DNA from: a virus
Virus record (IMG/VR): IMGVR_UViG_3300009085_000027
Location: 1 to 64,000 of that record
Length of the DNA stretch: 64,000 bases
Strand: one strand, 5' to 3'
A program made the translations under genes and the position numbers. The notes under the pieces were generated by a model that worked only from the letters and a program-made list of their open reading frames with translations, made no database searches and was not told the origin of the DNA. This document shows, piece after piece, positions 389 through 19,432 of this stretch. How positions within the stretch are numbered: position 1 is the first letter of the stretch; the number at the start of each line of letters is the position of its first letter.

Positions 389-2197
389 CTACATCTCGTT
401 GGGTGGGATCTTCATCTCAAAGTCCATCATTGCGGCGTCCTCGGCCGCAGAGCTCTGGGCTTCGCTGTCCGACACCTCTCGGATCGGGGCGATGATATCC
501 GGCCTCTGGTGGTCGAACATCGACACCATCAGGCAGTATAGAATGCTGTGAAAGGTGTCATCCGGTATCCCACGGGGCTTGTCGTATTTGATCATCCGCA
601 TGGTCTCGGAGTACTCCGACTTGATGGACAGGATGTCATCGGCGTACGGCGACTTGTAAACCTCCCACGCCGGGAGCCTCACCTTCATGGCCTTGATGGC
701 ATTGAATAGATCGGACATCAGTGGGGTCCTGAACGCGATGAACCTGTGCAGAGCTCCTCTGTAGATGAGCTTTCGTGGGGCCCGGGGGGCGTACTGGAAC
801 TGATGCACCCGCTTGGGTCCGAAGGTGGAGATCAGTTTTTTGTTTTGCATGAACCCCATGCCGTAGTCGCAGCCCAGGTACTTGAGTCTAAACTTGCGGA
901 CCAGCCTAGAGATCTCTGCGACCTGCAGCTCGGGATCTGCGAGTGGACCATCGAAGCGCTGGGAGTACACGACCTGGAAACCAGAATCGCCACGGACATA
1001 GCCGCCGACGGTGAACAACGAGTACGACGCGGATTCCCCCGTTCCCCAGTCGACCCCGCCGTACAGGGTGTGGCTTGTTCCCAGAGCGGCTACGGCATCC
1101 TCGTCCATGTGGTAGTTCGAGTCGCAGGCCCTGATGACCTCGGCTCGGCTGATGGGTTTGACGCCGGAGTCGTAGCTGATGGCCAAGACCTCGTTCATGA
1201 ACTGGGCCATGTTGTAGCGTTCACGGGCCAGTAAGATCTCTTTCCATTTGTCTTGGCTCTTGAAGTACCAAGGCACCATCAGACGGCAGATTCTGAAGCC
1301 CTCGAACTCCGCTCCGGGGTTCATCTCAACCCATTGAGCCATGGGGTGTTCCGGGTTCAGCGGGTTGCCACAGCGGTCACAAACCGGACCGGTCTTGCCC
1401 AGGTTGTTGGGTCCCAGGATGTTCCAGTGCCAGGTCGATGGCTTGTTCGGTGTACCGTGGTGTTCGCACGGGATGCACCACTCCGACTGGGTCGAGGCTT
1501 TGGACCAGTAGTGCTCGATGGTGTTGTCGAACGACTTGGGTGTGCCGCTGTAGACGTAGACCGGGTTTTGTCTGTGTGAGGCAGTCTCCTCAATGACCGG
1601 CATGGTCTCCTGGAGCAAGTCCTGGATCTCATCGGCAAAGATCGCGTTCACGGAAAGACCACGGATACGGTCTGCGTTGAGGAAGGCGTATCGCAGATAT
1701 ATCTTCGACCTGTTGACGAACACCTTCTCCAGGATGTTCATCGTCAGTTCCTTGTGGGTCAGGGACTTGACCAGTGGGCTGATGTCGATGATGTCGTGGA
1801 GTCTGGCGCTGCTGAACACCTTGGTTTGCATCGCGGATGGCGAGACGAACAAGGACTCGAAGCCGGGGTTCATCCCGCAGTTGGCCAGGATCTTGTTACC
1901 GACGGTGGTGGACTTCTCGGTTTGGCGGCTGGTGAGTAGGAGCTTCCTCGGGCTTTTGGAGTCGTAGATGCGGCGCAGGTATCTGCGCTCCTCGAAGTCC
2001 ATCTTCTTGATAACACCGCGGTCGCCGTCTTTGATTCGGACGAAGTGTTCGACCCACGTAGACGGGGTCATCTTGACACGGTGGTGGCGTCTTACAGTAG
2101 TCTTCTGGGCGAAGGGATCATCGACATGGGCGCCCTGAATCGGGTCACCCTCGAAGTCTTCGGGATCAATGCCAACACCCTTTACTCTGGACTCCAT
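389..2197 (-). CDS. terL: Terminase large subunit (packaging ATPase/nuclease)
   Basis: This is the motor and nuclease that cuts and packages phage DNA through the portal. The N-terminal ATPase shows a Walker A-type loop SRQTEKST (residues 90-97), a Walker B strand AIFADEIQD (185-193) and a coupling motif YSGTP (216-220). The C-terminal RNase H-fold nuclease shows Asp383 (GGVDWGTG), Asp444 (LGCDYGMG) and Asp546/547 (PDDTFHS). An insertion between the domains carries CxxC pairs at 241/244 and 273/276, a probable zinc ribbon of the kind known from GpA-type terminases. The ATPase loop has Glu where Gly is usual (RQxGK). It is the last gene of the minus-strand block that begins with the RNA polymerase. 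The ATG at 2197 is the furthest upstream start in frame. No small terminase subunit was recognised. Confidence 0.93.
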   Translation of the reverse strand: MESRVKGVGIDPEDFEGDPIQGAHVDDPFAQKTTVRRHHRVKMTPSTWVEHFVRIKDGDRGVIKKMDFEERRYLRRIYDSKSPRKLLLTSRQTEKSTTVGNKILANCGMNPGFESLFVSPSAMQTKVFSSARLHDIIDISPLVKSLTHKELTMNILEKVFVNRSKIYLRYAFLNADRIRGLSVNAIFADEIQDLLQETMPVIEETASHRQNPVYVYSGTPKSFDNTIEHYWSKASTQSEWCIPCEHHGTPNKPSTWHWNILGPNNLGKTGPVCDRCGNPLNPEHPMAQWVEMNPGAEFEGFRICRLMVPWYFKSQDKWKEILLARERYNMAQFMNEVLAISYDSGVKPISRAEVIRACDSNYHMDEDAVAALGTSHTLYGGVDWGTGESASYSLFTVGGYVRGDSGFQVVYSQRFDGPLADPELQVAEISRLVRKFRLKYLGCDYGMGFMQNKKLISTFGPKRVHQFQYAPRAPRKLIYRGALHRFIAFRTPLMSDLFNAIKAMKVRLPAWEVYKSPYADDILSIKSEYSETMRMIKYDKPRGIPDDTFHSILYCLMVSMFDHQRPDIIAPIREVSDSEAQSSAAEDAAMMDFEMKIPPNEM

Positions 2198-2474: not shown

Positions 2475-2769
2475 TGCAGAAGCTCTTGAGCTCCGAGACG
2501 TAGTTGGCGCGTACCTTGGTGGTGTCGAAGCAAGCCTGGATGGCATGCTCCAGGCGATCAGGCATGTGGTAGGACTCTTTCCAGTCCTTGGCGTCCTTGG
2601 CCGGAAAGAAGTGGAACACCATCGCGGCGTCATCCACGCGGATGCCGTACTCGACGAGGTAATCCGCCGTGTCCTTGGCCAGTGGTTCTGGGATGTGTGT
2701 GCTCAACGACGAGCACGACACGTCCTGGAGGTTTGCGGACTTCAGATCATCCTGGTTTGTGTTCGTCAT
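2383..2769 (-). CDS. Hypothetical protein, 128 aa
   Basis: The protein is acidic at its N-terminus and appears mixed alpha/beta. Core stretches such as AKDTADYLVEYGIRVDDAAM and ELKSFCIIVYGLG look like folded protein. Its start overlaps the 3' end of the upstream 315-aa gene (2747), which suggests translational coupling in the packaging-region operon. The position directly before terL is where a small terminase subunit often lies, but no helix-turn-helix or other diagnostic feature was seen, so no function is assigned. Confidence 0.7.
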   Translation of the reverse strand: MTNTNQDDLKSANLQDVSCSSLSTHIPEPLAKDTADYLVEYGIRVDDAAMVFHFFPAKDAKDWKESYHMPDRLEHAIQACFDTTKVRANYVSELKSFCIIVYGLGAGPDPWPLVERFFSEIERGPAAS

Positions 2770-3694
2770 TGGGCTCCTCTACGGTTTCCCCCTCGGTCTC
2801 TACAACGCTGGGGAGTGCTTTGATGTCGACAGCCTTGAGGCCTGGGATGTCGTGTACGGATAGGACCTTCTCGGAGTCGTAGGATACCTCAATCCGGCGG
2901 AGCTCTTCGAGAAGTTCTGCACTGCTGCCCCGGTGCTTGGCGAGCTCCTCATCGGCTCCACGCATGATCTGAAAGGCGTTGAGTGCGGACTGTGCCCGAC
3001 CCAGACCAGGTCTCTGCAGGATTACGGCTTCCAGGAACATGCGGAACGCCATGTCACGTGCCGTGGCATAGTGGATGACTGGGCTCAGTGAGTCCGTGCT
3101 TCGGTCCACCACGGCCAGACTCAGAGCCGCACCCGCAGCACTGCGCGGAGCCATCAGCGAGGTCTGGTAGTCGTCGGTGGTGTACCCCGCCATCCACTTG
3201 GTGAAGACGTCCTTCCACTCCGCGTTGTTCATCGCGGAGTAGTCCCAGTAGTAATGGGCGTAGAGCCGGACCACCCGCGGATTCATCACTGCCTCTGGCA
3301 GGGAGAAGCGCTGTTGAAGGCGTCTCGCTATGGCCTGTGGGTTCAGTGGTCCGATCAGAAAGGCTTCCAGGGTCCGACGAATCTGAGGCTCGTGAACGAT
3401 GTCCGTGGCACTGCGGACGTACTCATCGTTCGACCACATGTCTGTGATCTCCCAGCGACTCAGGAACTTCGCCGTCACCGCGTTGAACGGCTGGTTGCTG
3501 GGATCATACCCCACGGGGAACTGCATCCTGCGCTGCTCCTCCAGGATGGACTTGATCAGACGATCGAGGTCCTTTCTGTCCTGTGGGAGTGGGAATAACA
3601 GATCATCCAGACGAGCAATGACCTCGTCGGCCTTCAGAGACCGACGAGACAGCAAGTAGTAGATGTATCGCTTCGCCGGGTATCTCAGCATCAA
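2747..3694 (-). CDS. Hypothetical protein, 315 aa
   Basis: This is a largely helical, soluble protein with no signal peptide or membrane segment. The N-terminus is basic and aromatic (YPAKRYIYYLLSRRSLK), followed by a helical charged region (DRKDLDRLIKSILEEQRR). The C-terminus is acidic and probably disordered (VVETEGETVEEPNDEHKPG). Its start overlaps the stop of the upstream 690-aa gene (ATGA-type overlap at 3691-3694), and its end overlaps the next gene by 23 bases, so it belongs to the RNA polymerase-to-terminase unit. A DNA-binding or head-assembly role would suit the position but is not shown by the sequence. Confidence 0.75.
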   Translation of the reverse strand: MMLRYPAKRYIYYLLSRRSLKADEVIARLDDLLFPLPQDRKDLDRLIKSILEEQRRMQFPVGYDPSNQPFNAVTAKFLSRWEITDMWSNDEYVRSATDIVHEPQIRRTLEAFLIGPLNPQAIARRLQQRFSLPEAVMNPRVVRLYAHYYWDYSAMNNAEWKDVFTKWMAGYTTDDYQTSLMAPRSAAGAALSLAVVDRSTDSLSPVIHYATARDMAFRMFLEAVILQRPGLGRAQSALNAFQIMRGADEELAKHRGSSAELLEELRRIEVSYDSEKVLSVHDIPGLKAVDIKALPSVVETEGETVEEPNDEHKPG

Positions 3695-5763
3695 GAGCTC
3701 GCTGTGGTCTCCGCATCCGGATCCCGCAGCGCAAGCGACCTGAGTCCCTGAACCGTCTCGTCCAGTGCGCGAACCCCGCGGGCTGCGGCGAACTCCGGGA
3801 TCTCATTGAGACCGAGTCGCGAAGCCAGAAGGAGCTCACACAGCATGGAGAGGCACTGTTCAATGTAGGGGAGTCGGCTGATGTACATCCTAATGTTTTC
3901 CGAGTTGATGAAGCCGAGGCTGAGCACAGCATCGACAGTCATCGCGTTGGGGAAAACACTGGCTTCCTTCACGAGGTTCTGGCGCAGAGCCATCACCTCC
4001 GCGCTGCGGGCGGAAGCCAACTTTCGTGTGCTTTGGATTAGATCTTTGGCCAGCCTGACATCACTGACCCCAGAGATTTTGATGCTGCCGTTCAATGCCG
4101 CGGAGAGGCGGTTGTGGGCAGTCTTCGAGTCCAGCCCCGCGGAGCACAGGACCAACATGGCGTCGTCGAGGTCGAGTCGAGTACCCGATGCCGCGGCGAG
4201 CTTCGGCAGGTTGTGGTAGCGGAACTCGTAGGTGTCGTAGCTGTCGGAGAACACCGTGATGCTGGACCCAGCGACGGCCGCAGCGGTCTTATCCAGACCG
4301 TCCAGGGACCGAACCAGGGGCGTAGCGATCTCGGTATCCAGGCTCAGGAACTTCACGCTTGGCGACACCATGATGTCCCCACCCAGGGCCTTCATGCCTT
4401 GGACTCCAGGGACGATGCGGATGCGCCCTTCCTCACCGGAAAGGGTGTGGACCAGCCAGGAGTCCCCGCCGTCCATCCCGGCTTCCTTGCCCTTGATGGC
4501 GAGAGGCGCAGTGGCTTCGATGCCGCCCTGACCGGAGACGTAGAACACCCCAGTGCCCCGTGGGGGCGACGCCGGGAGGTCAACCCCTGTGGCGGTCATG
4601 GAACCAACGATCTGGTCCTGAATCATGGCGGCGGCACCATTGGTGAACACCGCGATGGGGCTGCGGGTGCCATCCAGGTCGAGTAGGCCAGGGATAACCC
4701 ACCCGGTCATCTCTTTGCCCTGCACGGTACGGACCTTGTAGATGCCGGGCTTTTCCACGATCTCCCAGTTCGAGACATCGGGGTCCGCAGCAGCGGTACC
4801 AGACCCAGTCAGAGTGACAGTGCCTTCGGTGTCCACCTTCTGGGTCACCTCGGGTCCGGCCTGCTTCAGGAACTCCTTGCGGGACATGTACTGTACCGGG
4901 GCACTATCCGTGACCCCGTAGTACGCCACTCGACTCGATGTCTTCACCCAGTACTGCGCCCGGGACTCATCGAAGCCGAACTGGAACACACTGGGGCGGG
5001 CTTGGCTGATGGCAACATCGCAGAGACCAGAAGCGGACTTCACCGCTGTGTCCTGGGCCTCGCTGAGAAGACGCAAGGCTCCGAGCATCGCGGTGTTTTC
5101 AGCCGAGGCCTTCACCAGACCTGGAGTACTGTGCAGGGTCTTCGCCACCTCTTCGATGTCCTGACCCCGGACTGTGGGCAGTGCGGCCTCCAGGAGCTCG
5201 AAGCTCAGCTTCATCCCAGGACCCTGAATGTGGGTCACAGCCCCGGCTGTGCCGCCACCCATGCCCTGGGAGATGCCGGCACCGAAGTCATTGTCGCTGC
5301 GTCCCGGCGGATAGAACATGTTGTACAACGTGGTGTCGCCCCAATCCTCCGTGATCATCTCGAAGGTCTCGGGACGGAACAGAATGGACCTCAAGCGATG
5401 GGCATTGAGCGGTACCATCTTGCCAGTGCCCGACATCATCAAGTCCATCGGCATGAGCAGGTGGTTCTTGATGATGACGGGGACCAAGGCTTTCTTGGCC
5501 GATCCACCAACCCGCGTCGCGCTCAGCGCGCTGTCGGTAGCCGAGGTGATGACAACGACGCCCAGGGCGTAGCCCTGCTCCTTGTCGACCTTCAGGAACA
5601 TCACCTCTGGGGTGTATTCCGACACTTCAGGGACCAAGCGGTATAGCTCGGTCAGAACCTGTCGTGTCCAGGTCTGGGGGTCTTCGTCGAGATGCACCGC
5701 AGCCGTCTTCGGCGTGGAGAAGACCAGTTCGGGCTCGTACTCGAAAATGTCCATGTCGCTCAT
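3691..5763 (-). CDS. Probable virion protein, 690 aa, unknown function
   Basis: This large soluble protein lies between the spike gene and the pre-terminase genes. It has an acidic N-terminus (SDMDIFEYEPEL), several beta-rich blocks and a Gly-rich loop (GAGISQGMGGG, near residue 155). Its C-terminal third is helical (TRKLASARSAEVMALRQNLV). No enzymatic motif was recognised. Its length, lack of membrane segments and place within a block of structural genes argue for a head, neck or internal virion component. A role packaged with the RNA polymerase is possible but untested. It is separated from the spike gene by 15 bases. Confidence 0.7.
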   Translation of the reverse strand: MSDMDIFEYEPELVFSTPKTAAVHLDEDPQTWTRQVLTELYRLVPEVSEYTPEVMFLKVDKEQGYALGVVVITSATDSALSATRVGGSAKKALVPVIIKNHLLMPMDLMMSGTGKMVPLNAHRLRSILFRPETFEMITEDWGDTTLYNMFYPPGRSDNDFGAGISQGMGGGTAGAVTHIQGPGMKLSFELLEAALPTVRGQDIEEVAKTLHSTPGLVKASAENTAMLGALRLLSEAQDTAVKSASGLCDVAISQARPSVFQFGFDESRAQYWVKTSSRVAYYGVTDSAPVQYMSRKEFLKQAGPEVTQKVDTEGTVTLTGSGTAAADPDVSNWEIVEKPGIYKVRTVQGKEMTGWVIPGLLDLDGTRSPIAVFTNGAAAMIQDQIVGSMTATGVDLPASPPRGTGVFYVSGQGGIEATAPLAIKGKEAGMDGGDSWLVHTLSGEEGRIRIVPGVQGMKALGGDIMVSPSVKFLSLDTEIATPLVRSLDGLDKTAAAVAGSSITVFSDSYDTYEFRYHNLPKLAAASGTRLDLDDAMLVLCSAGLDSKTAHNRLSAALNGSIKISGVSDVRLAKDLIQSTRKLASARSAEVMALRQNLVKEASVFPNAMTVDAVLSLGFINSENIRMYISRLPYIEQCLSMLCELLLASRLGLNEIPEFAAARGVRALDETVQGLRSLALRDPDAETTASS

Positions 5764-5778
5764 GGTATCTCACCCCAT

Positions 5779-6930
5779 CTATTCGAGGAACACCTTGGTG
5801 GAAAGCATCTGAGTCAGAAGCGCAATCTGGGACGGGGACAGCACGGCTGTTCCAATCGGGGGGCCTACCCCACCTGGGGGAAGGACAATCATGGGCTGGC
5901 TGAGCAAGGAAACCAGCGCAGGTCCCAGTACCGCGGATTGGGCCGCAGCCCGGCTCCCCAGCCTCACTGCGGCACCCCCGAGTGTGGCCGTGCCACTTGC
6001 TATGTGCTCGAGGCTGCCGCCGGCGGTGAGGCTTGTACTGCCGCCCACGGTGGTGCTGTGGTCCCCACCGACTTCCAGAGTGTCAGATCCCTGAACCTCC
6101 GTGGACCGGCTACCCGTGATGGTCTCGATGCGATCCCCATTGAGACCCACCTTGAGGGTGTAGACTGCCCCAGAGACCGACCCAGTGTCCCGGTCGATGC
6201 CCTGGGGTGCTACTGTGACCTCCCAAGCCGACTTGTCTGAGCCAGGCTCCGCAACGGGCAAGTACCTGACCTGGACTGTGGCCTTGGTGTCCTGGGCATA
6301 CTCCAGGAGATCCAAAGTCCACGTCGCCGGCGCCTTCCCCGAGGGGTCGGACTCAGACCGAGCCACGGTCCAGCTCAGATCCCCTCCAAAGGACTGCATC
6401 TCGTAGTTCTCGCAGAAGTCCTTGATGTAGTTGAGAACCGGGATGTAGAGGCGCTGGGACAGCGCAGTAGATCCAATCTGAACGATGCCACCCCGACGCA
6501 GGATGACGAAGTTCTCGTCCCGAGTCGTGAGTCCGACGTCTCCGGGATTCAACTCTGGACGCCTGGACCGGAACCCTACATCAGTGGGTGAGCCCTGGGG
6601 GTTGTCTGTGGTCTGGGACCGAGCGGCTTGATCATCCGGCGTGATCTCCACCGAGGGCAGACCCAGATACCCCATGACGAATGGCGGGGTGTTGTCACTG
6701 GGCCAACCCAACAAACAGATCGCCCCAACCTCGGGGAGATGATGAATCCCCTCGCCGTTGGCGTAGTGGTGGTACTGAGCCATGCACTGAATGTCAGTGA
6801 CGGTCTTGGCGCTGTGCCGGGTCTCTACCGTAACAGTCCAGGTCTTTCGATTGACGTCAGTGATCACGGCCTCCTCCAACCTGAAGAAGGAGTACCGGTT
6901 GTGTGAGGGTCCGCCTGGGGTCCTAGCCAT
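5779..6930 (-). CDS. Baseplate hub spike (gp5/gpV-like OB fold with repeat stalk)
   Basis: Residues about 15-90 read as the OB-fold domain of baseplate assembly or spike proteins, with the typical pattern of a converted partner surface followed by GAICLLGWPSDNTPPFVMGYLG. From about residue 270, short repeats occur (GSRSTEVQGSDTLEVGGDHS, then TTVGGSTSLTAGGSLEHIAS). These are the octad-type beta-prism repeats of gp5 and VgrG needles. The C-terminal part (VRLGSRAAAQSAVLGPAL and the following proline/glycine-rich tail) resembles the end of such stalks. The protein would be the membrane-piercing tip of the tail tube. No lysozyme domain is present. Its start overlaps the end of the RNA polymerase gene by 8 bases, so it is probably co-transcribed with it. 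Confidence 0.8.
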   Translation of the reverse strand: MARTPGGPSHNRYSFFRLEEAVITDVNRKTWTVTVETRHSAKTVTDIQCMAQYHHYANGEGIHHLPEVGAICLLGWPSDNTPPFVMGYLGLPSVEITPDDQAARSQTTDNPQGSPTDVGFRSRRPELNPGDVGLTTRDENFVILRRGGIVQIGSTALSQRLYIPVLNYIKDFCENYEMQSFGGDLSWTVARSESDPSGKAPATWTLDLLEYAQDTKATVQVRYLPVAEPGSDKSAWEVTVAPQGIDRDTGSVSGAVYTLKVGLNGDRIETITGSRSTEVQGSDTLEVGGDHSTTVGGSTSLTAGGSLEHIASGTATLGGAAVRLGSRAAAQSAVLGPALVSLLSQPMIVLPPGGVGPPIGTAVLSPSQIALLTQMLSTKVFLE

Positions 6931-9900
6931 GAGGCTTGTCCTGTGCCGTGCCGTAAGCTCTACCCGCTGCGACGCCGATAGCTAGTCCAGGGATCGGGTG
7001 TCGGCCACCAGGTGTCGACGTATGTCCATGCTGAATGGCGGTGAGCACACTCTGTGTGATTCGCTCACCCTGGAGACGCCCCATCCAGTCTGGCTGACTC
7101 CGCAAGGGGATCATACTGGCGGGGATCAAGTGGGACTCGTACTCAATAGGCTTCTTACCCTTCAGAACCGTCCTATTGATCTCATCCAAAACTGGCTTCG
7201 TCACGAAGTCACCCCGGACGTAACTATCATGGGCCCCGGGATCTTGCACCCGAACCACACTCGTCGCTGTGCGAACCGCGAGCTCGGCGTGCCGACGTAG
7301 AACACCCTCCCTGCCATAGATCCCACCAATACGATCCACCATGTGGGATTGCACGGCGTCAAGACCCTTCGTGCTCAACAGGTCGTGGATGTTGGGCTCT
7401 CCATGGGTGAGCACTTCACCCTTGGAGAAGGAATACCCAGGCTTGACGTGATCCAGAGTCCTCTGCCTCGACACCAAGGGGTTCTTCTTCTTGTCGATGT
7501 AGATGTTCCAGGTCCCCTGTCGGGTTTTCTCCACCGAGGAGACCACCCCAGTCGACGGAGCCACAGCTGCGTCCTCGCGACTGCGCTTCGAAGCAGCGAA
7601 GAGACGATGGACATCACTGAACTCGTCCATGCCTGTACCCTTGGTGCTGACGATACCGCCACCGTGGGTCTGCCGAAGCATTAGCTGGGCAGCGCGCTCA
7701 CCCAAAGCCTGTGCCGCGATGATTCCGACGTTCTCCCCCATGTGATAGTCGCCACCACTGGGATGCACCCCCATGCACTTGGAGCAGACCCCGTGCGGCA
7801 TGCGGCACTTCAGCGGTGACCTCACCAGGATGCGATCGACCTTTGCCTTCTCGGCGTGGGCCAAGAGGTCTGGTGTAACGACGGTCCCTGCCGGGACTTC
7901 ACGAGCCCCCAGCTTCAATGGCGCAGCCAGGTGGCGGTCCACGACGTCCTTGTTCTTGATCGGCATCAACATGCCTTGCGGCGTGCCGCAATCAGCCCCG
8001 GTGATGGGTTGATCAATATTGGCTTGCACCAAGAGCTTGGACATGTACCCGGGCTCGCGAACCGAGTCGGTCTTCTGGATTAGGGCACGACGAGCTCCGG
8101 CAGCCTGGAGGAAGTATCCGCCCAGGTCGATGCCCTCGGCAAAGGACTTCGTGATTGGCACCTTCGAGGGGCGACCCAGGTGGTCCTCAACAAGCATGGG
8201 GGCCATCACGAGGCCCTGGTACTGCTCACGCTTGGCTTTGATACCGCTCACCGCCATGTCGCTGACGTTGGTGGGGTGATTGGCGAAGTGGGTGGAGTAG
8301 GTGTCGTGCAGCTTCCTGGTCGCGTCGAGCCAGTGCTGGGTCACCTCATCGGTCTTCCCCTGGGCCATGAGGGGGTTCACCTTCTTCTGTGCAGCCGCAA
8401 CGATTTGGTCGCGCTTGTCCCTCAGTGGCTCGAGGTCCTTGAGTGTCACGGTGTGACCCGACTCGTACGCCATTTGGAACCCCAGACGGCTGAGATTGTC
8501 GGCGAGCTCCACGAAGTGCTTGGGCTGGGACTTCGCTGTATCGTGAAGGATCTCGGCCTGGAACTTCTTGTCGAATGGCGCCTTCAGGTCTGTCAGGATC
8601 CGGGTCCGGTACTTCTCCGGGACCACAGCAGCCACACGGGCTCGTCCCAGAGTGGTGTCCCCAACGCCCTGGATATGGATCGTCTCATTGAGCTGGACTC
8701 GGCTCTCTTTGAACGCCTTCTCCGCCTCATCCTTGGTCTTGAAGGCCTTGCCCTTGGCAGCCCCACGAGGGACGGACATGCGGTACAGCGCCAGGGCCGA
8801 TTCGTTGGAAGGGGCGTAGAGCACGTCACCGGAACTCTCCGAAATGATTCGCTGTGACGGAACGATCCTCCTGGTCTCCTCCACTGCAGCGTGGGTCAAA
8901 GGGACCATCAGGGCAACGGTGTCGCCATCGATGTCAGCATTCAGTGGCGGCAGCACCAGGGGGCTGAGCTTCACCGCGGGGTCGTCGGTGAGCTTCACGT
9001 TCTGCCCCACCAACCCGTACTGGTGGAGCACAGGATCTCGCTTCATCAGGAGTGGTCGATTCTTGATCTCCTGCTCCAAAGCCTTGATAGCGAGTGGCGC
9101 CTTCTGCGACACCATGATCTGTGCCTTGTCACCAGGCACACCCGAACGAATCAGACGGCTGACTATGAAAGGCCGGTAGAGCTCAGCAGCAATCTTCTTG
9201 GGCACCCCGACTTCATCCACACCAAGGTCGGGGTCCACCGTGATGGTGGCCCGAGACGTGTAGTCCTGCTTCTTCGCTATGATCTTGTCCTGGAAGAAGC
9301 CGTCCTTGGGCTGCTCTCCGCTGAGCATGTGGAGAATCCCGGGTAGCTTCTTGCTCCGGTCCTCGCGAGTACCACGCATGTCGAGGTCGAGCGCCTTCTT
9401 CCCCTTCGGAGTCGTACCAAACAGGTTCCGAAGCTCCTGATACAACCCGGCCTGAGCATCGAGCGTGGCGTTGAACGGGATCTTCTCCCCATGCTTTAGC
9501 GACTCATTGGTCACACCAAGTCGGCGGTACAGGGCGTTGAGTGGGTTGTTGTTGATGGTGCCGTCCGGCTTCGTCGTCTGTGGACGGAAGATCGGCGGTA
9601 TCACGGGGACATTCTGGATGGTCCAGGCGTCTGCTGGTTTGACCCCGAGCTCCTTTAGGGTGCGCAGCGCGTGGTACTTGAAGTGGGCCTTCTCCAGCGC
9701 AGCTTCCTTGATCTTCGGATCCTTGAGCGCATCCTTGGCGTCCTTCAGCTCCTTGTCGACATTGATCTTGGACAAAGCCTCGCGGAAACCTCTGCCGCCG
9801 TATTGGCCACCGGGGAGCTTCTTCTTCCCCTCGATGATGTCCGAGATGTCGGCTTCCTGGATGCCGAGGACTCGAGAGATGGCTCTGGCGTGGATGGGGT

Positions 9901-12900
9901 TGGGCATCGGCTCATGGAGACGGATATGACCCCAGTGGGTTCCACCTTCACTTCCGCCCGTGATGTGTGGGTCGAAGAGTCCGCCAGGCTCGGGGCGGTC
10001 GTCCTTGCCACGAAGTGTACGGGTCGGTCGCTTGATTTCCCCTCGGCTCAGGGCGAGGGTCTCGGCATCAGTCCGCGGAATGATCCGAACGGTGCCTCCC
10101 TCGTTCTTCACGGTCGTGCCCATCGCTGTGAGCATGGCCTCGAACTTCTTGTAGACGAACGGGATCTGGGGCTTGGGTAGAACGGCGGCGCCGTTGGTCA
10201 GAGCGGCCCAGACCGCATGGGCCTGGGACTGGTCCGACTTCAGGGTCTGCATTTCCTTGAGGTTGTCGTGAAGACCAGAGGCTAGAGCCGCATAGATCCC
10301 CAACGAGCCCAAGGACTGAGCTCCGTTGTGCCCACCACCACGAGGGATCTGGGTGTTGGCATCGTAGTGGAGCTTCGGCGTTCCCAGTGCTGGGAAACTC
10401 GGTCCGCCGCTGCGGACGTGGGTCTTCTTATCGATCTGGTGTTCGAGCTGGAACACGTAGTGGGGACCCACAGTGATGTCCCCGAGCTTCCTCCCCGTCT
10501 TGGGGTCGTAGAGAGCTTCTGTGTCCTTCAACCCATGGGACTTGAGCTCGCCCTGCAGCTTCTTCAGGTAGTCGACTCCGCCCTGGAAGTTCTTGACCAC
10601 GTAGGCCTTGCCGGTCTTTTCCGCGATTCGACCCGCGGCTGTCTCCAGGATCTGCCCCGGGTTGATACGACCCGGCACTGACACAGGATTGATCAAGATC
10701 TCAACGTGTTTGGACTCAGCATCATGTGGCATCTCCTTGTCGGGAAGGATGCTGGCCACAATGCCCTTGGCACTGTGCCGGGTCGAGAGCTTCGACCCCA
10801 CCTGGATTGGCTCCAGGGTCTTGACGTGGACCACGATTTGTCCACCCACGTTCTGGGCACGGACCACCTCACCGACATGGTCAGAGTCCCAGACCATGGA
10901 GGCGTTGTCATAGCGCTCACGTAGACGCTTGCCGATCTTTGCAGCGGCTCGAGGGCCCGTGGCGATCAGCCTGGTATCTTCGTTGAGAGCCAGGACGAGT
11001 GGATCCCCGGGATGAACCTTGGTGCCGACCCTAACGATTCCGTCGTCGCCAATCTTGTTGAGCTTGTCCAGGCCAAATACGGTGCCCTTGCTGCGGATAA
11101 AGCTCTTCTTGTCGACGGTGTGGTTGTCGGTGACAAGCATGGAGGGCTTGTGCAAGTGCTCGGAGCTCAGCTTCTTCGCCGCAGACTCGGAGATTACGAT
11201 GCCGTCTTCGTGGTTTGAGCCGTTAGCGATGTAGGCTACGCGGAGGTTAGTGCCGAGAGCGAGCTTGCCGCCCTTGGTGTAGTTGTTGTCTGCGACGATC
11301 TCTCCGGCCTTGACCTTGTCTCCGGGCTTCACCAAAGGTGTGGAGTGGAGTTCACCCTTGCTGTGGTTGGTCGGGTAGTGGTCGTAGAGGTCGACGGTGT
11401 GAGTCCCAGACTTCCCACGGATGACCACCTCGCCGGGCTTCACTGATACCACGACTCCGGCTTCCGGTGACTTTCGGGCCAAGAACCCGGAACCGACGAG
11501 GTCTTCAAAGGTGCGTCCGGCCCCGGCCTCGACCTGGACCTTGGGTGCTTCCCTTCCCGTGATGCTGATGGCCTGCGCCATGTGTCGGGCGCTCATCGTG
11601 CTGCGTCCGGCGCTGTCATTCTGCATGAACGGGACGAGATTGGTCTCCACGGTGAAGACCTGTGTCGCCGACGGCATCACGTAGTGGGCATCACCCCAGG
11701 GTAGGTCGTCACGGATCTGGCCGTGACCATCACTCATCCTGGTGGTCTTCCCCCGCGGCGTTGGCTTGCCGCCCTTCCACACCACCTGGTCTGGGAGGAT
11801 CACGGAGCTCACCGATGCCCTTGCGGCATCGACGTCCTCGAGCTTACCGGTGCGCAGGTTGTAGAGCCGGATGTGCGGCTTTCGATCCTTGACGGTGACT
11901 CCGAAAGCCTTGTGGGTGTTGACCCCGGTGTTGGACTCCGGGGTGTAAACGGGGTCCAAGAATCCGAGGTGGCTGGGGTCCAGGGCGGTGTTGGACTTCG
12001 ACAGTGCGTGCTGATTCTGGATGCCACCAGGCCCGGTGATGGTCACCAGGTTGTTGTCGCTGATCATTGTCAGCGGGTTGGTCTGCTTACCAACGGAGGT
12101 CAGCGACGTGGTGAAGACGTGATTCAGAGGGCGCTGAATCAAGTCAGGCATGAAGACGTCACGAAGGACCTGACGATCTCCAGAGGCTAGACGGCGTTGA
12201 ACCGTGGGCTTGCTCAAAGCCTGCTGGACTCGGCGGGTGATTTCCGGGGAGGCCTGAGCGATACGCTCCATGAAGTGGTCCTTGGCCGACCACAACTCCT
12301 TGTACCGAAGGCTGTCGATTGGGTCGGGATCTTTGCGACCCGCACTGACATCCAAGAGCTTCTTCGACGCCTCAAAGAGAAGGGCGGCATTGACCTGAGA
12401 GGTACGCACCCCGAGATTGGCATGAGCCACTTCGGGGTCCAGCTTCGTGGACTCAAAAATCGCGTGGGTCTCATTGCGAAGATCTGCGGTGCTCGCCGGA
12501 GCTTCCTTCCGCCACACCTCGTAAAGGGACCGAAGGTTCTTGTCCACACTGGCCTTGGACTTCGAGGCGTGGAAGGTGGACTCACCCCAGGCCTTCTTCA
12601 TGGCCTCATCCGTCACACCCATTGTGCTGAGTACGGAGTAGAGCGGGATCTTGCGGGACCCCACCTTCATGTGGATGTACCCGGACTCATCGAGCTGTAC
12701 GTCGAAGCTCCTGCCTTTGGCGAGCTGGAACTGGGCTTCGTACTCCCCTGGCTTCTCCGTGGCCTTGACGTAAGCACCTGGACGAAGACGCCACTGGTTC
12801 GCGATGGACTTCTCCTGCCCACCCATGATGTAGGAGTAGTGCCTGGTGAGCTTGGGGATCTTAGCGATCAGGGCATTGGGACGAGACACCACCGTCTTGT

Positions 12901-13141
12901 TCTCTTTGGTGTCAACGACCTCGATGGTCCCCAGGACTGGTACAGCCCAGGACTTACCCTCCAGCCGGGCCTTGGCCTGACCCTTGATGTCATCCGTGCC
13001 CAGGTGATCATCTACAGTAAGTCCGCTTACGCGAACCTCGAATCGACCAGACCGATCTTTGATCGGAAAGGTCCCACTGATCTGTGTGAGGAGTTGTTCC
13101 TTGAGCTCCTCGAACTGGGCTTTTGGGTCGGAGGTGAGCAC
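6923..13141 (-). CDS. Fused beta-beta' DNA-directed RNA polymerase, 2072 aa
   Basis: One polypeptide holds both large subunits of a bacterial-type RNA polymerase. The beta part (about 1-1025) shows the fork and rifampicin-pocket region (FMQNDSAGRSTMSARHMAQA, 505-524), TPESN (400-404), GSNHEDGIVISES (641-653), VGSKLSTRHSAKGIV (781-795) and a C-terminal GGHNGAQSLGSLGIYA block (936-951). The beta' part shows NVPVIPPIFRP (1177-1187), RPLLMKRDPVLHQYGL (1362-1377) and the catalytic loop NADIDGDT with Asp1403, 1405 and 1407. It also has a trigger-loop and bridge-helix region (1628-1720) and the second zinc site Cys1718, 1779, 1786 and 1789. The N-terminal beta' zinc ribbon is missing: GLFDPHI runs almost directly into WGHIRLHEPMP. 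No alpha, omega or sigma gene was found here. The GTG start at 13141 has no Shine-Dalgarno sequence and lies 6 bases after a -10 box. Confidence 0.96.
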   Translation of the reverse strand: MLTSDPKAQFEELKEQLLTQISGTFPIKDRSGRFEVRVSGLTVDDHLGTDDIKGQAKARLEGKSWAVPVLGTIEVVDTKENKTVVSRPNALIAKIPKLTRHYSYIMGGQEKSIANQWRLRPGAYVKATEKPGEYEAQFQLAKGRSFDVQLDESGYIHMKVGSRKIPLYSVLSTMGVTDEAMKKAWGESTFHASKSKASVDKNLRSLYEVWRKEAPASTADLRNETHAIFESTKLDPEVAHANLGVRTSQVNAALLFEASKKLLDVSAGRKDPDPIDSLRYKELWSAKDHFMERIAQASPEITRRVQQALSKPTVQRRLASGDRQVLRDVFMPDLIQRPLNHVFTTSLTSVGKQTNPLTMISDNNLVTITGPGGIQNQHALSKSNTALDPSHLGFLDPVYTPESNTGVNTHKAFGVTVKDRKPHIRLYNLRTGKLEDVDAARASVSSVILPDQVVWKGGKPTPRGKTTRMSDGHGQIRDDLPWGDAHYVMPSATQVFTVETNLVPFMQNDSAGRSTMSARHMAQAISITGREAPKVQVEAGAGRTFEDLVGSGFLARKSPEAGVVVSVKPGEVVIRGKSGTHTVDLYDHYPTNHSKGELHSTPLVKPGDKVKAGEIVADNNYTKGGKLALGTNLRVAYIANGSNHEDGIVISESAAKKLSSEHLHKPSMLVTDNHTVDKKSFIRSKGTVFGLDKLNKIGDDGIVRVGTKVHPGDPLVLALNEDTRLIATGPRAAAKIGKRLRERYDNASMVWDSDHVGEVVRAQNVGGQIVVHVKTLEPIQVGSKLSTRHSAKGIVASILPDKEMPHDAESKHVEILINPVSVPGRINPGQILETAAGRIAEKTGKAYVVKNFQGGVDYLKKLQGELKSHGLKDTEALYDPKTGRKLGDITVGPHYVFQLEHQIDKKTHVRSGGPSFPALGTPKLHYDANTQIPRGGGHNGAQSLGSLGIYAALASGLHDNLKEMQTLKSDQSQAHAVWAALTNGAAVLPKPQIPFVYKKFEAMLTAMGTTVKNEGGTVRIIPRTDAETLALSRGEIKRPTRTLRGKDDRPEPGGLFDPHITGGSEGGTHWGHIRLHEPMPNPIHARAISRVLGIQEADISDIIEGKKKLPGGQYGGRGFREALSKINVDKELKDAKDALKDPKIKEAALEKAHFKYHALRTLKELGVKPADAWTIQNVPVIPPIFRPQTTKPDGTINNNPLNALYRRLGVTNESLKHGEKIPFNATLDAQAGLYQELRNLFGTTPKGKKALDLDMRGTREDRSKKLPGILHMLSGEQPKDGFFQDKIIAKKQDYTSRATITVDPDLGVDEVGVPKKIAAELYRPFIVSRLIRSGVPGDKAQIMVSQKAPLAIKALEQEIKNRPLLMKRDPVLHQYGLVGQNVKLTDDPAVKLSPLVLPPLNADIDGDTVALMVPLTHAAVEETRRIVPSQRIISESSGDVLYAPSNESALALYRMSVPRGAAKGKAFKTKDEAEKAFKESRVQLNETIHIQGVGDTTLGRARVAAVVPEKYRTRILTDLKAPFDKKFQAEILHDTAKSQPKHFVELADNLSRLGFQMAYESGHTVTLKDLEPLRDKRDQIVAAAQKKVNPLMAQGKTDEVTQHWLDATRKLHDTYSTHFANHPTNVSDMAVSGIKAKREQYQGLVMAPMLVEDHLGRPSKVPITKSFAEGIDLGGYFLQAAGARRALIQKTDSVREPGYMSKLLVQANIDQPITGADCGTPQGMLMPIKNKDVVDRHLAAPLKLGAREVPAGTVVTPDLLAHAEKAKVDRILVRSPLKCRMPHGVCSKCMGVHPSGGDYHMGENVGIIAAQALGERAAQLMLRQTHGGGIVSTKGTGMDEFSDVHRLFAASKRSREDAAVAPSTGVVSSVEKTRQGTWNIYIDKKKNPLVSRQRTLDHVKPGYSFSKGEVLTHGEPNIHDLLSTKGLDAVQSHMVDRIGGIYGREGVLRRHAELAVRTATSVVRVQDPGAHDSYVRGDFVTKPVLDEINRTVLKGKKPIEYESHLIPASMIPLRSQPDWMGRLQGERITQSVLTAIQHGHTSTPGGRHPIPGLAIGVAAGRAYGTAQDKPHG

Positions 13142-13793: not shown

Positions 13794-14930
13794 ATGTATA
13801 ACTACTCCCAAACCAAAGAACTTGTTCGACGCGAGCTACTGGCCCAAAACGCGGCTGTGGTGGCCAGGTCTTCTCAGGCCCTCAACATCCCACTCCTCCT
13901 GGGTCCTGTGGGTGGTGGCAAGACCAGTATCGCTCGGGGATTCGCTATCGAGTTCGGGCTCCAGCTCTGCGCCATCAACTCGGGAGAGAACTCCGATGCC
14001 ACGGACCTGAGTGGTGTCCCGGTCCCGTCTAGAATCGTGTCGAAGGAAGACAAGATCCCCTACATGCAATGGGTCTTGAACCGCTACGCCGCTACGGCTT
14101 GCTCGGAGCCGGTGTTTCTGTTCTTCGACGACTTGGACAAAGCACCCCCGCCGGTGCAGAGCGCACTACTCGGCATCACAGCCACCCGGATGTTCCGGGA
14201 CCAAAAAATACACCCCGGCACACTCATCATGGGGGCCGGCAACCGCATTGATGACGACATCAATGCGAATGAGATCTCTGAGTCCCTGCGAACCAGGATG
14301 ACCATCATCGAGATGTCACCGGATGTCATCTCATTCTCCAACTACGGTGTCAGCAGCGGAGAAATCCATCCCGCCGTGATTGGCTACCTGCAGTACAAAC
14401 CAGAGCACCTCTACAAGCACGAAACCGGTGTCAATCGATTCCCCTGCCCCCGTGGGTGGTGGGAAGTGTCCCAGCAGTTCAGGCTCTTTCCAGATGCTGA
14501 GGAAGACCTCTTCAGCAATGGAGCCAAGGACAACTGGAAAGGTATCGTTGACCGCAAGTGTGGTTCCCACATCGGCAATGACTTCTGGGCCTGGTACCAG
14601 GTCATCTCCAAGGTCGATATCAAGGGGATCCTCTCCGGGTCTTCTCGGCTTCAACAGGGCTCGGACAATGACCGCAGGATGTCGCAGTTCGCGGCGATCT
14701 TCGCCATCTCACAGGAGCTCAACCTGCGTGGGGTGAAGGCCGAGTACATCGGGCTGCCCACATTCGTCACGGACCTAGATCCTGAGATGCGGGTAGCGTT
14801 TGTCGTGCAGATCTCTCAGAAGGTGAGGGTCAGCATCTCCACGATGTTCCCCGCCGCAGCCAACACCATGATGGCTCAGATCGTTCAGTCACAGAACGGG
14901 AAGAGTCGTCTCCAAGGGGCCACCCCATGA
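13794..14930 (+). CDS. MoxR-like AAA+ ATPase
   Basis: This 378-aa AAA+ ATPase of the MoxR/RavA type would couple ATP hydrolysis to remodelling of a target protein or complex. It shows Walker A GPVGGGKT (37-44), a helix and loop with DATDLSGVPVP (68-78), Walker B VFLFFDDLDKA (107-117), sensor 1 AGN (148-150) and a probable arginine finger in SLRTRM (164-169). Its stop overlaps the ATG of the next gene (ATGA at 14927), which encodes a VWA-type protein, the usual MoxR partner. Known MoxR-VWA pairs act as chaperones that insert cofactors or mature complexes. The target here is unknown. Confidence 0.85.
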   Translation: MYNYSQTKELVRRELLAQNAAVVARSSQALNIPLLLGPVGGGKTSIARGFAIEFGLQLCAINSGENSDATDLSGVPVPSRIVSKEDKIPYMQWVLNRYAATACSEPVFLFFDDLDKAPPPVQSALLGITATRMFRDQKIHPGTLIMGAGNRIDDDINANEISESLRTRMTIIEMSPDVISFSNYGVSSGEIHPAVIGYLQYKPEHLYKHETGVNRFPCPRGWWEVSQQFRLFPDAEEDLFSNGAKDNWKGIVDRKCGSHIGNDFWAWYQVISKVDIKGILSGSSRLQQGSDNDRRMSQFAAIFAISQELNLRGVKAEYIGLPTFVTDLDPEMRVAFVVQISQKVRVSISTMFPAAANTMMAQIVQSQNGKSRLQGATP

Positions 14931-16150
14931 TAAACAAGGCCAGCATCACAAACCGGGACGCGCATGAGGCAGTGCATGGCGCGATCACCGAGTTGATGAT
15001 GCGATTCCCCCTTGCAGGACTATCCTGCTTGGGGGAGGCCGTTGTGATCGAGGAATGCAGCCATGCTGACAGCCTCAACACCGACGGCCGTTCCATCAGG
15101 TATTCACCGCATTGGATCATGCAGTCCACACACCGGGGTCGTATTTTTGATCTCCTCCATGAGTGGCTGCACATCTTCTTCAACCACGTTTTGAGGTGTC
15201 AGGACAGAAACCCCGAGGTGTGGAACATGGCCTGCGACATCATCGTTGTGGCCGAGGCCTGCAGGGTTCTATCCACCCCCAACGACACGTGGGAGCCACC
15301 CACAGACGGGGTGATACCTCCACCGTGGTCTGTGGGGCTCACCACTGAAGAGATCTATGACAAACTGGTGTCGAACCCACAGTCCAAGCCCCAGCCGAAG
15401 AGGCCAAAACCAGAAGGCACCGACACGCCTTCGATTCAGGACTCATCCGACCTGAACTATGCCGGGGCCAAGGCCCTGGAAGCCAACCCGGAAAAGGAAG
15501 ACGAGTTCTACCGCAAGTTCTCTTCCGAGCTGGCCCAGGCCAACCTGGTAATGCAGCAGATCTCGAACAAGAGCTCTGAAGACCTGTATGGCCCGGTGAT
15601 TGGGTCGCGACTGAACCAAGTGCTACGCGGCAAGATCCCTTGGAGTCGCCTGTTGAAGGGCGACATGCTGAAAGCCTTGGGGGATGAGTTCACGTCGTAC
15701 TCACCACCAAAGATGAGGTACTACCCAGAAATCATTCTTCCGACACTGAAGTCTCGACAGGAGAAGACACTTCTCATCGCCATCGACGACTCAGCCAGCG
15801 TCGGGGAGCGTCTGCACCGCGAGTTCGTAGCCAATGTCATGCCTGCTGCGAACCGAGCGGAGTGGACTGTAGTAGTCACCTTCGATCAGATCATTCGAGA
15901 GACCATACGAACCAGGAAGCCGAAGGACATCATGAAGCAGGCCAAGTTCCTCAGTGGCATCCACTCCTGCACTGATGTGAGGCCGGTGTTCGAGTTGGCC
16001 AAGACAGTGAAGCCGTCGGCGATCGCTATCCTCACCGACGGCTTCCTCTCGATACCAGACAAGCCAGTGCCCAACACGTTGTGGTGCATTCCCACCAATG
16101 GAAAATCCCAGCCCTGGGGGAAGAACTACGTCATGGACATTACATGGTGA
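14927..16150 (+). CDS. DUF2201-type metallopeptidase-like/VWA protein (MoxR partner)
   Basis: The N-terminal domain has HEWLH (residues 78-82), a zinc-peptidase HExxH motif, followed by NMACDIIVVAEAC. This is the signature of the DUF2201 putative metallopeptidase domain. A charged, Pro/Lys-rich linker (about 145-165) leads to a C-terminal VWA-like domain with a DxSxS metal site, IAIDDSASVGE (about residue 285), and a later LTDGFLS strand. In bacteria this architecture pairs with a MoxR ATPase, as here. It would act as the substrate-binding or scaffold half of the chaperone. It overlaps the genes on both sides by 4 and 7 bases, indicating tight coupling. Peptidase activity is not certain, as many relatives are uncharacterised. 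Confidence 0.85.
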   Translation: MINKASITNRDAHEAVHGAITELMMRFPLAGLSCLGEAVVIEECSHADSLNTDGRSIRYSPHWIMQSTHRGRIFDLLHEWLHIFFNHVLRCQDRNPEVWNMACDIIVVAEACRVLSTPNDTWEPPTDGVIPPPWSVGLTTEEIYDKLVSNPQSKPQPKRPKPEGTDTPSIQDSSDLNYAGAKALEANPEKEDEFYRKFSSELAQANLVMQQISNKSSEDLYGPVIGSRLNQVLRGKIPWSRLLKGDMLKALGDEFTSYSPPKMRYYPEIILPTLKSRQEKTLLIAIDDSASVGERLHREFVANVMPAANRAEWTVVVTFDQIIRETIRTRKPKDIMKQAKFLSGIHSCTDVRPVFELAKTVKPSAIAILTDGFLSIPDKPVPNTLWCIPTNGKSQPWGKNYVMDITW

Positions 16151-17569: not shown

Positions 17570-19432
17570 CTACCTCCGCGGCGGAAGTACCTCGGGTTGT
17601 GGCCGCATGTCCACTCCAGGCTGTGGGGGCTGTTGCGGGGGTTCGGGCTGCTGTTGCTCCGGCATCACGACCTGGGCCAACTCCGGTGACTCCACCCTGA
17701 GCTGGGCCATGTAGGCCTCGCGCTGCTCCGCTGGCATGGAAGAGACCCTGCGGGCCAGGGCTGCGGCGACGCTGTCCAGTGGATAGCCCCCGACCTGGTG
17801 CAGCCTCGAGCCCTGGGCCTCGGCAAAGGGGTCTTTGGACTTCGTGGTCTCAGCTGACATGGCCTTCTGTGCCGCGCCCTGGGCCTCGGCCTGGTACTTC
17901 GCTGCAACCAACTGGGCTTCGCCCTGGATGTCGGCCTGCAAGAGTTGCTGCGACCGCATAGCCTTGGACTTCAAGTCCACTTCTCTGGCCTGGAGATCGA
18001 CCTCGTCATCGATCTTGAGGTCGGCGTAAGACAGCAACGTAGCATCAGAGATCTTACTCATCTGACTGAGCTGAGCCATGTAGGCCTGGCGCTGGAGGTC
18101 ATCAGCCATGCGGAAAGGCTTGAACCGGCCATCTGGAACAGGCCAGTTCAGGAAAGCCCCCATGCGCTTCATCACCCAGTGCAACAGACGCTTGTGGCCA
18201 TGAACATTGCTGAGGAAGAAGTTCTCTAGCATCCGCATGCTCACCGAGGTCCCAGCGTAGTTGCCGTGGCCGAAGACCAGGTCGATGGGGAACCCCATAC
18301 CGACAGCGATCTGCTCAGACATCTGCTGAATCTCTGGCATCAGGAGAAGGCTTCGACCGTTCTCACCAATGGTCTGGTGGCCCACGGGGAACGGCAGAAT
18401 CCCGATGTAGGCCGGGTCCATTCTTTGCCTAGCGATCTCGCGACGGATGTGATCACGCCAGTCAGCTAGGTTGATCGTCGTGAAAGGGTCCGCCCCAGCC
18501 GTTGCGGGTTGGGGGAACAAGAAAGTCTGTGGCACGAGGTGCTGAAGCAGGATCGCTTCCTGGGCCTTCTTCATGACCTGGACGTAGAAGGCGTCCTTCA
18601 GCACGGGCATGATCAGTGGGATACCCCAACCACGATTCATCGTGCTCAGGCTGGGCCGGCGTAGGTGGAAGACCTCGTTGCGGTCGAACACCAAGCTGCG
18701 CTTTGTAGTCACGGCTTCGAGGAACACCTCTGGTGTCGTGGCTACGAGGTCCTTCCGTCCCATCATGACCTGGCTACGAAAGTCCGGGGACAGGTCCAAG
18801 CCGTAGTCCATCCGGCCGGTGGCCTCATTGTAGAAGATGTGGACGTACTCCGGGTTCCACCGGATCATATTGATCTCGGCGTACTTCGGGTAGTAATCAT
18901 CCCGGCTCTTCGCGAAGTCGGTCTGTCCGCACTTCGGGCACGTCAGCCAGAACTTGTGATTCACGTACCGCCAGTGTGGGCGGCTCATCACGGCGTCATG
19001 CTCGGCGTTGCAGAGCGCGCAGATCACCTTCTTGCGGAATGGGAAGCTCGGGCTGACGAAGGCATTGCCGTAGACGTGAAAGTCCAGGTTGATCTCGAAC
19101 TGGTGAACCCGGTAGTTCATCACTCCGAGAAGGAGCTCCTCCCACTTGTTCACCACGCCACGATCCTTGTGCTGAAGGATTAGGTCGGTGACTGGATACT
19201 CCGATGCCTTGGTGCAGATCGCGTTGATGATGCCGTGAGTCAGGTGATAGAACCTGCAGAACCCGAACAGGGCTTTGACTGTAGGTGGGGTGTAGGTACT
19301 GGCATGGTCGAAGAAGGGGTTGGCAAAGGGCTGATACCTTCGGCCCAAGATCTGTGACCGACTCGCCGTACCCTCGAACTGTGCGGATCGTGAAGCCCCA
19401 AAGGCTGCGCCACCACCACTAAAGAACGTCAT
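17570..19432 (-). CDS. Portal protein with zinc-ribbon insertion
   Basis: This is the dodecameric DNA gate at the head-tail vertex, partner of terminase. The order and length (620 aa) fit a portal: an N-terminal Gly/Ser-rich arm, an FYHLTHGIINAICTKASEYP helix, a beta-rich wing (EINLDFHVYGNAFV) and a central helix region with VGMGFPIDLVFGHGNYAGTS (near 385). A long helical crown follows (VDLKSKAMRSQQLLQADIQG) with a Gln/Pro-rich tail. An insertion with CALC (138-141) and CPKC (165-168) makes a zinc ribbon, which is unusual in portals. The gene overlaps the upstream 316-aa gene by 4 bases and ends the head operon that starts at 23955. Confidence 0.85.
   Translation of the reverse strand: MTFFSGGGAAFGASRSAQFEGTASRSQILGRRYQPFANPFFDHASTYTPPTVKALFGFCRFYHLTHGIINAICTKASEYPVTDLILQHKDRGVVNKWEELLLGVMNYRVHQFEINLDFHVYGNAFVSPSFPFRKKVICALCNAEHDAVMSRPHWRYVNHKFWLTCPKCGQTDFAKSRDDYYPKYAEINMIRWNPEYVHIFYNEATGRMDYGLDLSPDFRSQVMMGRKDLVATTPEVFLEAVTTKRSLVFDRNEVFHLRRPSLSTMNRGWGIPLIMPVLKDAFYVQVMKKAQEAILLQHLVPQTFLFPQPATAGADPFTTINLADWRDHIRREIARQRMDPAYIGILPFPVGHQTIGENGRSLLLMPEIQQMSEQIAVGMGFPIDLVFGHGNYAGTSVSMRMLENFFLSNVHGHKRLLHWVMKRMGAFLNWPVPDGRFKPFRMADDLQRQAYMAQLSQMSKISDATLLSYADLKIDDEVDLQAREVDLKSKAMRSQQLLQADIQGEAQLVAAKYQAEAQGAAQKAMSAETTKSKDPFAEAQGSRLHQVGGYPLDSVAAALARRVSSMPAEQREAYMAQLRVESPELAQVVMPEQQQPEPPQQPPQPGVDMRPQPEVLPPRR

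What the first reader, a model, noticed from the sequence alone, without database searches (positions are those of the whole stretch)
6923..13141. Single-chain beta-beta' RNA polymerase in a phage
The sequence shows both large-subunit halves in order within one 2072-codon frame, with the catalytic aspartates (1403, 1405, 1407) and the bacterial second zinc site intact. Most phage RNA polymerases are T7-like, split (phiKZ type) or reduced two-barrel forms (YonO, crAss type). From memory, a lineage of aquatic tailed phages with deeply branching multisubunit polymerase has been reported; whether this gene belongs there is untested. The fusion, with no alpha gene in view, raises the question of whether it assembles alone.
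Basis: partly seen in the sequence, partly recalled or inferred. Interest (0 to 1): 0.85.

Follow-up and report, generated by a model that had tools for sequence, protein, structure and literature searches.

The report
Phage-encoded single-chain bacterial-type RNA polymerase
This virus of bacteria carries the two big halves of a cell-type RNA polymerase as one continuous protein; it belongs to a deep-branching phage lineage that lacks the usual assembly subunits, encodes its own promoter-recognition (sigma) protein, and probably carries the enzyme inside the virus particle.

Summary
In detail: window 13141..6923 (minus strand) is one intact GTG-started frame of 2072 codons, beta (about 1-1027) joined to beta' (about 1028-2072) with almost no linker. 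The catalytic DxDGD, beta lysines, trigger-loop histidine and second zinc site are kept; the beta' N-terminal zinc ribbon is deleted. It is not an artefact: 24 other distinct phage sequences carry the same single frame. A sister clade, including the isolates Salmonella phage Arash and Vibrio phage D69, keeps the fusion but is re-split inside beta'. Separate and concatenated trees place the clade outside all sampled bacteria and archaea, so it is no recent host capture. No phage alpha or omega gene was found. Every clade genome of at least 137 kb (23 of 23) encodes a divergent sigma-70-like protein; the window's own partial contig (74 kb) does not show it. In Arash the published virion proteome contains both RNAP pieces and this sigma at similar length-normalised abundance. 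Best reading: an alpha-less single-chain core plus dedicated sigma, packaged in the head and injected to start transcription. Fusion, sigma linkage, gene order and phylogeny are shown; activity, assembly and injection are inferred. It fails the mReC capsid criterion.

The parts
6923..13141 (-). Single-chain beta-beta' RNA polymerase gene (GTG start, 2072 aa, TAG stop)
10061..13141 (-). beta half, residues about 1-1027
   Evidence: Pfam Rpb2_6 at 566-914; beta tree; alignment to bacterial beta
6926..10060 (-). beta' half, residues about 1028-2072
   Evidence: Pfam Rpb1_2, Rpb1_3, Rpb1_5; beta' tree
10766..10792 (-). beta lysine motif, K784 and K792 (GSKLSTRHSAKG), equivalent of bacterial GDKLAGRHGNKG
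   Evidence: both lysines in all 25 fused sequences
9926..9985 (-). Residues 1053-1072 (GGLFDPHITGGSEGGTHWGH): place where the bacterial beta' N-terminal zinc ribbon is missing
   Evidence: no cysteine pairs here in any fused or split sequence; zinc ribbon present in bacteria, archaea and separate-gene phages
8921..8935 (-). Active-site DIDGD, residues 1403-1407
   Evidence: Asp triad invariant in all fused sequences
7988..7990 (-). C1718, first ligand of the second beta' zinc site
7775..7807 (-). C1779, C1786, C1789, remaining ligands of the second beta' zinc site
   Evidence: one distant relative, L035, has lost the last Cys
7664..7666 (-). H1826, trigger-loop histidine
   Evidence: aligned and conserved in all fused sequences
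5779..6930 (-). Downstream gene overlapping the RNAP stop by 8 nt: gp5-like spike / baseplate hub protein
   Evidence: Gp5_trimer_C 2e-4, phrog_430 4e-4, adjacent to RNAP across the clade, overlap read directly
3691..5763 (-). Conserved gene of the late cluster, function unassigned
   Evidence: matches in 35 loci, conserved place downstream of RNAP
2747..3694 (-). Conserved gene of the late cluster, function unassigned
   Evidence: 27 loci, conserved place
389..2197 (-). Terminase large subunit
   Evidence: GpA_ATPase 1e-8, phrog_675 6e-50, conserved place
17570..19432 (-). Portal protein, upstream of RNAP on the same strand
   Evidence: homologue of Arash portal gp204 (3e-70), matches in 61 loci; same strand upstream across the clade

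Best explanation
The gene encodes the whole catalytic core of a bacterial-type RNA polymerase as one chain: beta and beta' joined end to end, without the beta' zinc ribbon and without phage-encoded alpha or omega. Tethering two large subunits that fold onto each other replaces, at least in part, the assembly role of the alpha dimer. The core is loaded onto phage promoters by a dedicated, divergent sigma-70-like protein encoded elsewhere in the genome. The gene lies in the late morphogenesis cluster (portal ... RNAP - spike - TerL), so the enzyme is made late, packaged into the head together with its sigma, and injected with the DNA to transcribe the first genes independently of host RNAP. Shown: fusion, conservation, absence of phage alpha and omega, sigma co-occurrence in relatives, cluster position, and RNAP plus sigma peptides in purified particles of the relative Arash. 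Inferred: activity, alpha-independence, pairing of core with sigma, packaging and injection in this phage.
For: Fusion in 25 distinct sequences, with sister members that keep the beta-to-beta' junction although re-split later. Catalytic residues kept. One clade with 100/100 support outside Bacteria plus Archaea. Alpha 0 of 47 records over cut-off (one sub-threshold match) and omega 0 of 17, with 13/14 and 14/14 controls ringing. Sigma-like protein in 23 of 23 clade genomes of at least 137 kb and in 0 of 6 separate-gene phages; its profile matches RpoD/SigA in the PDB at 1.7e-15 over regions 2 to 4, and the predicted fold's top matches are sigma factors, although with low TM-scores. Arash virion proteomics (PMC10585845): gp206 3516 spectra, gp216 1210, sigma gp10 467; per residue 2.3, 2.0 and 2.0, against portal 1.5 and capsid 4.3. 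Structural-gene synteny and 8-nt overlap with the spike gene. The predicted core model matches bacterial beta' over about 750 columns.
Against: No biochemistry exists. The Arash authors note that enzymes in particles may be carry-over from abundant expression, and some counts in their table look noisy. The virion data come from a split relative with about 31% identity, not from a fused member. The window's contig is partial and shows no sigma. Host alpha might be recruited; alpha-contact surfaces were not tested. No phage promoter motif was found.
Confidence: 0.62

Rival explanations
1. Same single-chain enzyme and sigma, but a non-virion polymerase made after infection for middle or late genes; its presence in Arash particles is contamination, and early genes use host RNAP.
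For: The Arash authors raise carry-over themselves, and metabolic enzymes such as ribonucleotide reductase are in the same list. phiKZ-type phages have both virion and non-virion enzymes (PMC7598289).
Against: RNAP pieces and sigma exceed the portal protein per residue; the gene sits in the late structural cluster and overlaps the spike gene.
Confidence: 0.22
2. The fused chain still needs host alpha (and perhaps omega), so it is a phage core that borrows the host assembly platform.
For: Sequence is closer to bacterial RNAP than phiKZ-type enzymes are; alpha-binding surfaces were not examined. Natural fusions such as that of Helicobacter retain alpha (established knowledge, not tested here).
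Against: Jumbo-phage RNAPs work without alpha (PMC7598289). A virion enzyme acting at once in the cell would need alpha packaged or captured; Arash's published list names phage proteins only, so it neither shows nor excludes host alpha.
Confidence: 0.2
3. Recent capture of a host operon that became fused.
For: Bacterial-type domain order and second zinc site.
Against: Clade lies outside all sampled bacteria and archaea in beta, beta' and concatenated trees, with a long stem; best identity to bacterial sequences about 28%.
Confidence: 0.03
4. Assembly or sequencing artefact joining two genes.
For: None beyond the general possibility.
Against: 24 other distinct single-frame homologues from independent metagenomes.
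Confidence: 0.01

Closest known systems
Salmonella phage Arash gp206 + gp216 (OQ632216; PMC10585845) and Vibrio phages D69, D148, D181
   Same: Same clade (100/100), same beta-beta' junction, missing zinc ribbon, portal upstream, orthologous sigma
   Different: beta' is cut again after the active-site barrel (query about 1490/1500), so two chains; the Arash authors call them 'beta' and 'beta prime' and do not describe the fusion
mReC, multi-subunit RNAP-encoding Caudovirales (PMC7481178)
   Same: Tailed phages with deep-branching bacterial-type beta and beta'
   Different: The paper reports no fusion in this group and does not mention sigma; its capsid family PF07068 was not found in this clade. 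Whether any of its 97 contigs are of this type could not be checked
phiKZ / AR9 jumbo-phage vRNAP and nvRNAP (PMC7598289)
   Same: Phage beta/beta' enzymes without alpha or omega; virion form injected; a sigma-like subunit (gp68) in the phiKZ nvRNAP (PMC13282480)
   Different: Those are split into four or five polypeptides; this is one chain and much closer to cellular sequences
crAss-like phage gp66 and Thermus phage P23-45 gp96 (PMC10770324)
   Same: Single-chain two-barrel RNAPs found in virions
   Different: Reduced, highly diverged two-barrel enzymes; this one keeps recognisable beta and beta' along their length and pairs with a sigma-70-type factor
Helicobacter beta-beta' fusion (from the literature; a Helicobacter beta' row, L107, is in the tree)
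   Same: End-to-end beta-beta' fusion in one frame
   Different: Cellular, with alpha, omega and cellular sigma; the Helicobacter row falls inside Bacteria

Membership tests
Multisubunit-type (bacterial beta/beta') DNA-dependent RNAP | Two double-psi barrels with DxDGD on beta' and two conserved lysines on beta | tested here: met
Multisubunit-type (bacterial beta/beta') DNA-dependent RNAP | Alpha dimer and omega encoded with it | tested here: not met
   alpha 0/47 over cut-off, omega 0/17, controls ring; borrowing of host alpha not testable
Multisubunit-type (bacterial beta/beta') DNA-dependent RNAP | Sigma-70-family specificity factor | tested here: met
   23/23 clade genomes of at least 137 kb, PDB profile match; not seen in the window's own partial contig
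mReC (PMC7481178) | Deep-branching RNAP separate from cellular homologues | tested here: met
mReC (PMC7481178) | Major capsid protein of family PF07068 | tested here: not met
   0 of 19 fused/split records; present in RHph_Y65 and Carin-5
mReC (PMC7481178) | Terminase of family PF03237 | tested here: inconclusive
   window TerL matches PF05876 only; some split-clade members pass PF03237
mReC (PMC7481178) | RNAP in one clade with the published mReC sequences | not testable with these tools
   mReC sequence lists sit in supplements that could not be read
phiKZ-type jumbo phage RNAP | Each large subunit split into two or more polypeptides | tested here: not met
   single frame
Virion RNA polymerase | Present in the virion and injected | tested here: inconclusive
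   published proteome of the relative Arash only; injection not testable

The most novel reading that the evidence does not exclude
A two-polypeptide holoenzyme: one beta-beta' chain plus one dedicated sigma, with no alpha or omega from phage or host, pre-assembled and packaged in the virion. That would be the simplest full-length cellular-type sigma-dependent RNAP known.
Probability: 0.45. Interest if true: 0.86.

Novelty: new variant of a known kind. Interest (0 to 1): 0.72.

Why it matters
It would be a natural, recombinantly tractable test of whether the alpha platform is needed to hold beta and beta' together, and of how a sigma-70-type factor works on a core with no alpha and no beta' zinc ribbon. 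It connects cellular multisubunit enzymes with the alpha-less phage enzymes, and it redescribes the RNAP of cultured phages (Arash, D69) whose published annotation hides the fusion. The lineage recurs in many IMG/VR metagenomes, with long contigs of about 137-196 kb.

Tried and rejected
Searched for phage promoter motifs upstream of 18 intergenic starts in the 74 kb record and in the 172 kb relative: nothing convincing. Pfam sigma models alone missed the sigma in the closest long relative; it appeared only through orthologue search (against 66, 70). Considered and rejected: artefact; recent host capture; cyanobacterial origin (the re-split site at about 1490/1500 coincides with the cyanobacterial rpoC1/rpoC2 split, but the split clade does not group with Bacteria, while the Melainabacteria row L105 falls inside Bacteria). 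Relations among the different phage RNAP groups are unresolved (72/75 support, long branches).

Full report
OBSERVATION. The reported interval holds one open frame of 2072 codons on the minus strand, 13141 down to 6923, starting GTG and ending TAG. The record (G000) is an IMG/VR virus contig of 73,934 bp, of which the window is the first 64 kb. Pfam finds Rpb2_6 (566-914, 6e-51), Rpb1_2, Rpb1_3 and Rpb1_5 in that order within the one protein. The Asp triad 1403/1405/1407 and the four cysteines of the second zinc site (1718, 1779, 1786, 1789) are present and invariant in the closest relatives.

NOT AN ARTEFACT. A first IMG/VR search gave four relatives matching the full length (contigs up to 172 kb), 53-69% identical, in the same single frame. 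A profile search gave 69 loci. Mapping their frames gives 25 distinct single-frame beta-beta' polymerases, this one included, of 1985-2304 aa and as low as about 32% identity.

THREE ARCHITECTURES IN ONE CLADE. (a) One chain, as here. (b) One cut after the active-site barrel at query position about 1490/1500, found in Salmonella phage Arash (gp206, gp216), Vibrio phage D69 and several 170-183 kb contigs. (c) The same plus a second cut at about 1107/1115, roughly 85 residues inside beta' and not at the beta/beta' border near 1027. All types therefore share the fused junction, and the cuts look secondary: the split clade is monophyletic (100/100) and type (c) forms a subclade of it (100/99). The main cut lies where cyanobacterial and melainabacterial loci also break, a site already noted as shared by jumbo-phage and cyanobacterial enzymes (PMC7598289).

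ANATOMY. Beta ends near 1027 and runs straight into the beta' sequence GEIKRP...GLFDPHITGG...HWGHIRL, equivalent to bacterial GEVKKP...GLFCARIFGP-[zinc ribbon]-MGHIEL. In all fused and split members the zinc ribbon is replaced by a few residues, whereas bacteria, archaea and the separate-gene phages keep it. The beta lysines (K784, K792), the trigger-loop histidine (H1826) and, with one exception (L035), the second zinc site are conserved. An AlphaFold2 model of residues 492-1655 (mean pLDDT 77.7, pTM 0.65) matches bacterial beta' chains best in the PDB (about 750 columns, TM about 0.4) and phage or giant-virus RNAP subunits in BFVD. The modest TM-scores partly reflect that the query spans parts of two PDB chains, and the model was not used for finer claims.

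PHYLOGENY. Separate beta (57 rows) and beta' (70 rows) trees under LG+C20 PMSF each join fused and split sequences with SH-aLRT 100 and leave Bacteria as its own side (97 and 98). The concatenated tree with bootstraps gives 100/100 for the clade, 99/99 for Bacteria and 100/99 for Bacteria plus Archaea against all phages. This speaks against a recent capture from the sampled bacterial phyla. The order among phage RNAP groups is not resolved (72/75), and long branches forbid claims about great age.

PARTNERS. No alpha homologue passed the cut-off in 47 records (one sub-threshold match, E 0.04) and no omega in 17, while 13 and 14 of 14 control genomes rang. Pfam sigma models gave patchy hits. Following those frames showed a 234-276 aa family, orthologous to Arash gp10, with sigma regions 2, 3 and 4. 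A profile of it finds a member in 23 of 23 fused- or split-clade genomes of at least 137 kb and in none of six separate-gene phage records. The same profile matches RpoD/SigA structures at 1.7e-15, and the predicted fold has sigma factors as its top hits, although with low TM-scores and a pTM of only 0.40. The window's contig, less than half the size of the long relatives, shows none; this is read as missing sequence, not as demonstrated absence.

SETTING. Downstream on the same strand follow a gp5-like spike gene overlapping the RNAP stop by 8 nt, two conserved genes and the terminase; upstream on the same strand is the portal gene. This order is kept through most of the fused clade, and the portal is upstream in the split clade too. 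The polymerase thus sits in the morphogenesis cluster.

VIRION EVIDENCE FROM A RELATIVE. In the Arash particle proteome (PMC10585845) gp206 is the most detected protein (3516 spectra, 128 unique peptides, 100% coverage), with gp216 at 1210 and sigma gp10 at 467. Divided by length these are 2.3, 2.0 and 2.0 spectra per residue, against 1.5 for portal and 4.3 for capsid. That is what a packaged core-plus-sigma would give, but spectral counts are rough, other abundant proteins of that list have similar values, and the authors allow for carry-over. The authors label gp206 'beta' and gp216 'beta prime'; the alignment here shows that gp206 is beta plus the first part of beta', including the catalytic motif.

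MECHANISM. Most likely the chain folds as a self-contained two-barrel core, the covalent link and the closely packed halves doing the work of the alpha dimer; the dedicated sigma supplies promoter recognition; both are packaged late and injected. The fusion, the sigma in relatives, the missing alpha/omega and the setting are shown; catalysis, alpha-independence, complex formation and injection are inferences. Alternatives (non-virion role, host alpha) remain open and are directly testable.

NOVELTY. Single-chain two-barrel phage RNAPs (crAss gp66, P23-45) and split alpha-less phage RNAPs (phiKZ, AR9) are known, as are cellular beta-beta' fusions. A comparison of two-barrel enzymes mentions multisubunit derivatives with fused barrels (PMC10770324), but no description of this phage clade, its full-length fusion or its universal sigma was found in the papers searched, a library that is not complete. 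It is filed as a new variant of a known kind, and not as mReC because the capsid criterion fails.

Noticed in passing
L009 (Vibrio phage D181) 7503-7783: A group I intron (Rfam RF00028, E 1.4e-26) followed by a homing endonuclease gene interrupts the RNAP gene at the conserved beta motif near query residue 508; D69 has it uninterrupted, and L074 is broken at the same place.
   Followed up: partly
window 13794-16150 (+): AAA ATPase gene followed by a DUF2201 metallopeptidase/VWA-like gene (MoxR-VWA-like pair), transcribed away from the RNAP gene and conserved beside it in about 20 loci.
   Followed up: partly
L013 (Arash 120974-121165), L214, L215, L216: A second sigma-70 region 2 protein, different from the gp10-type sigma, in several genomes of the clade.
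   Followed up: no
L061 8950-14964: A 2005-aa frame in which only query residues 3-1460 are matched; a large insertion (intein?) is possible.
   Followed up: no
window 62724-63671 (-): Patatin-like phospholipase gene (1.5e-26) next to an amidase-like gene at 62035-62730.
   Followed up: no
L083-L086, L011, L208: Other phages with separate beta' and beta genes in the order beta' then beta; the zinc ribbon is kept where inspected (L011, L083); in YerA41 (L208) and L086 beta' is also cut in two.
   Followed up: partly
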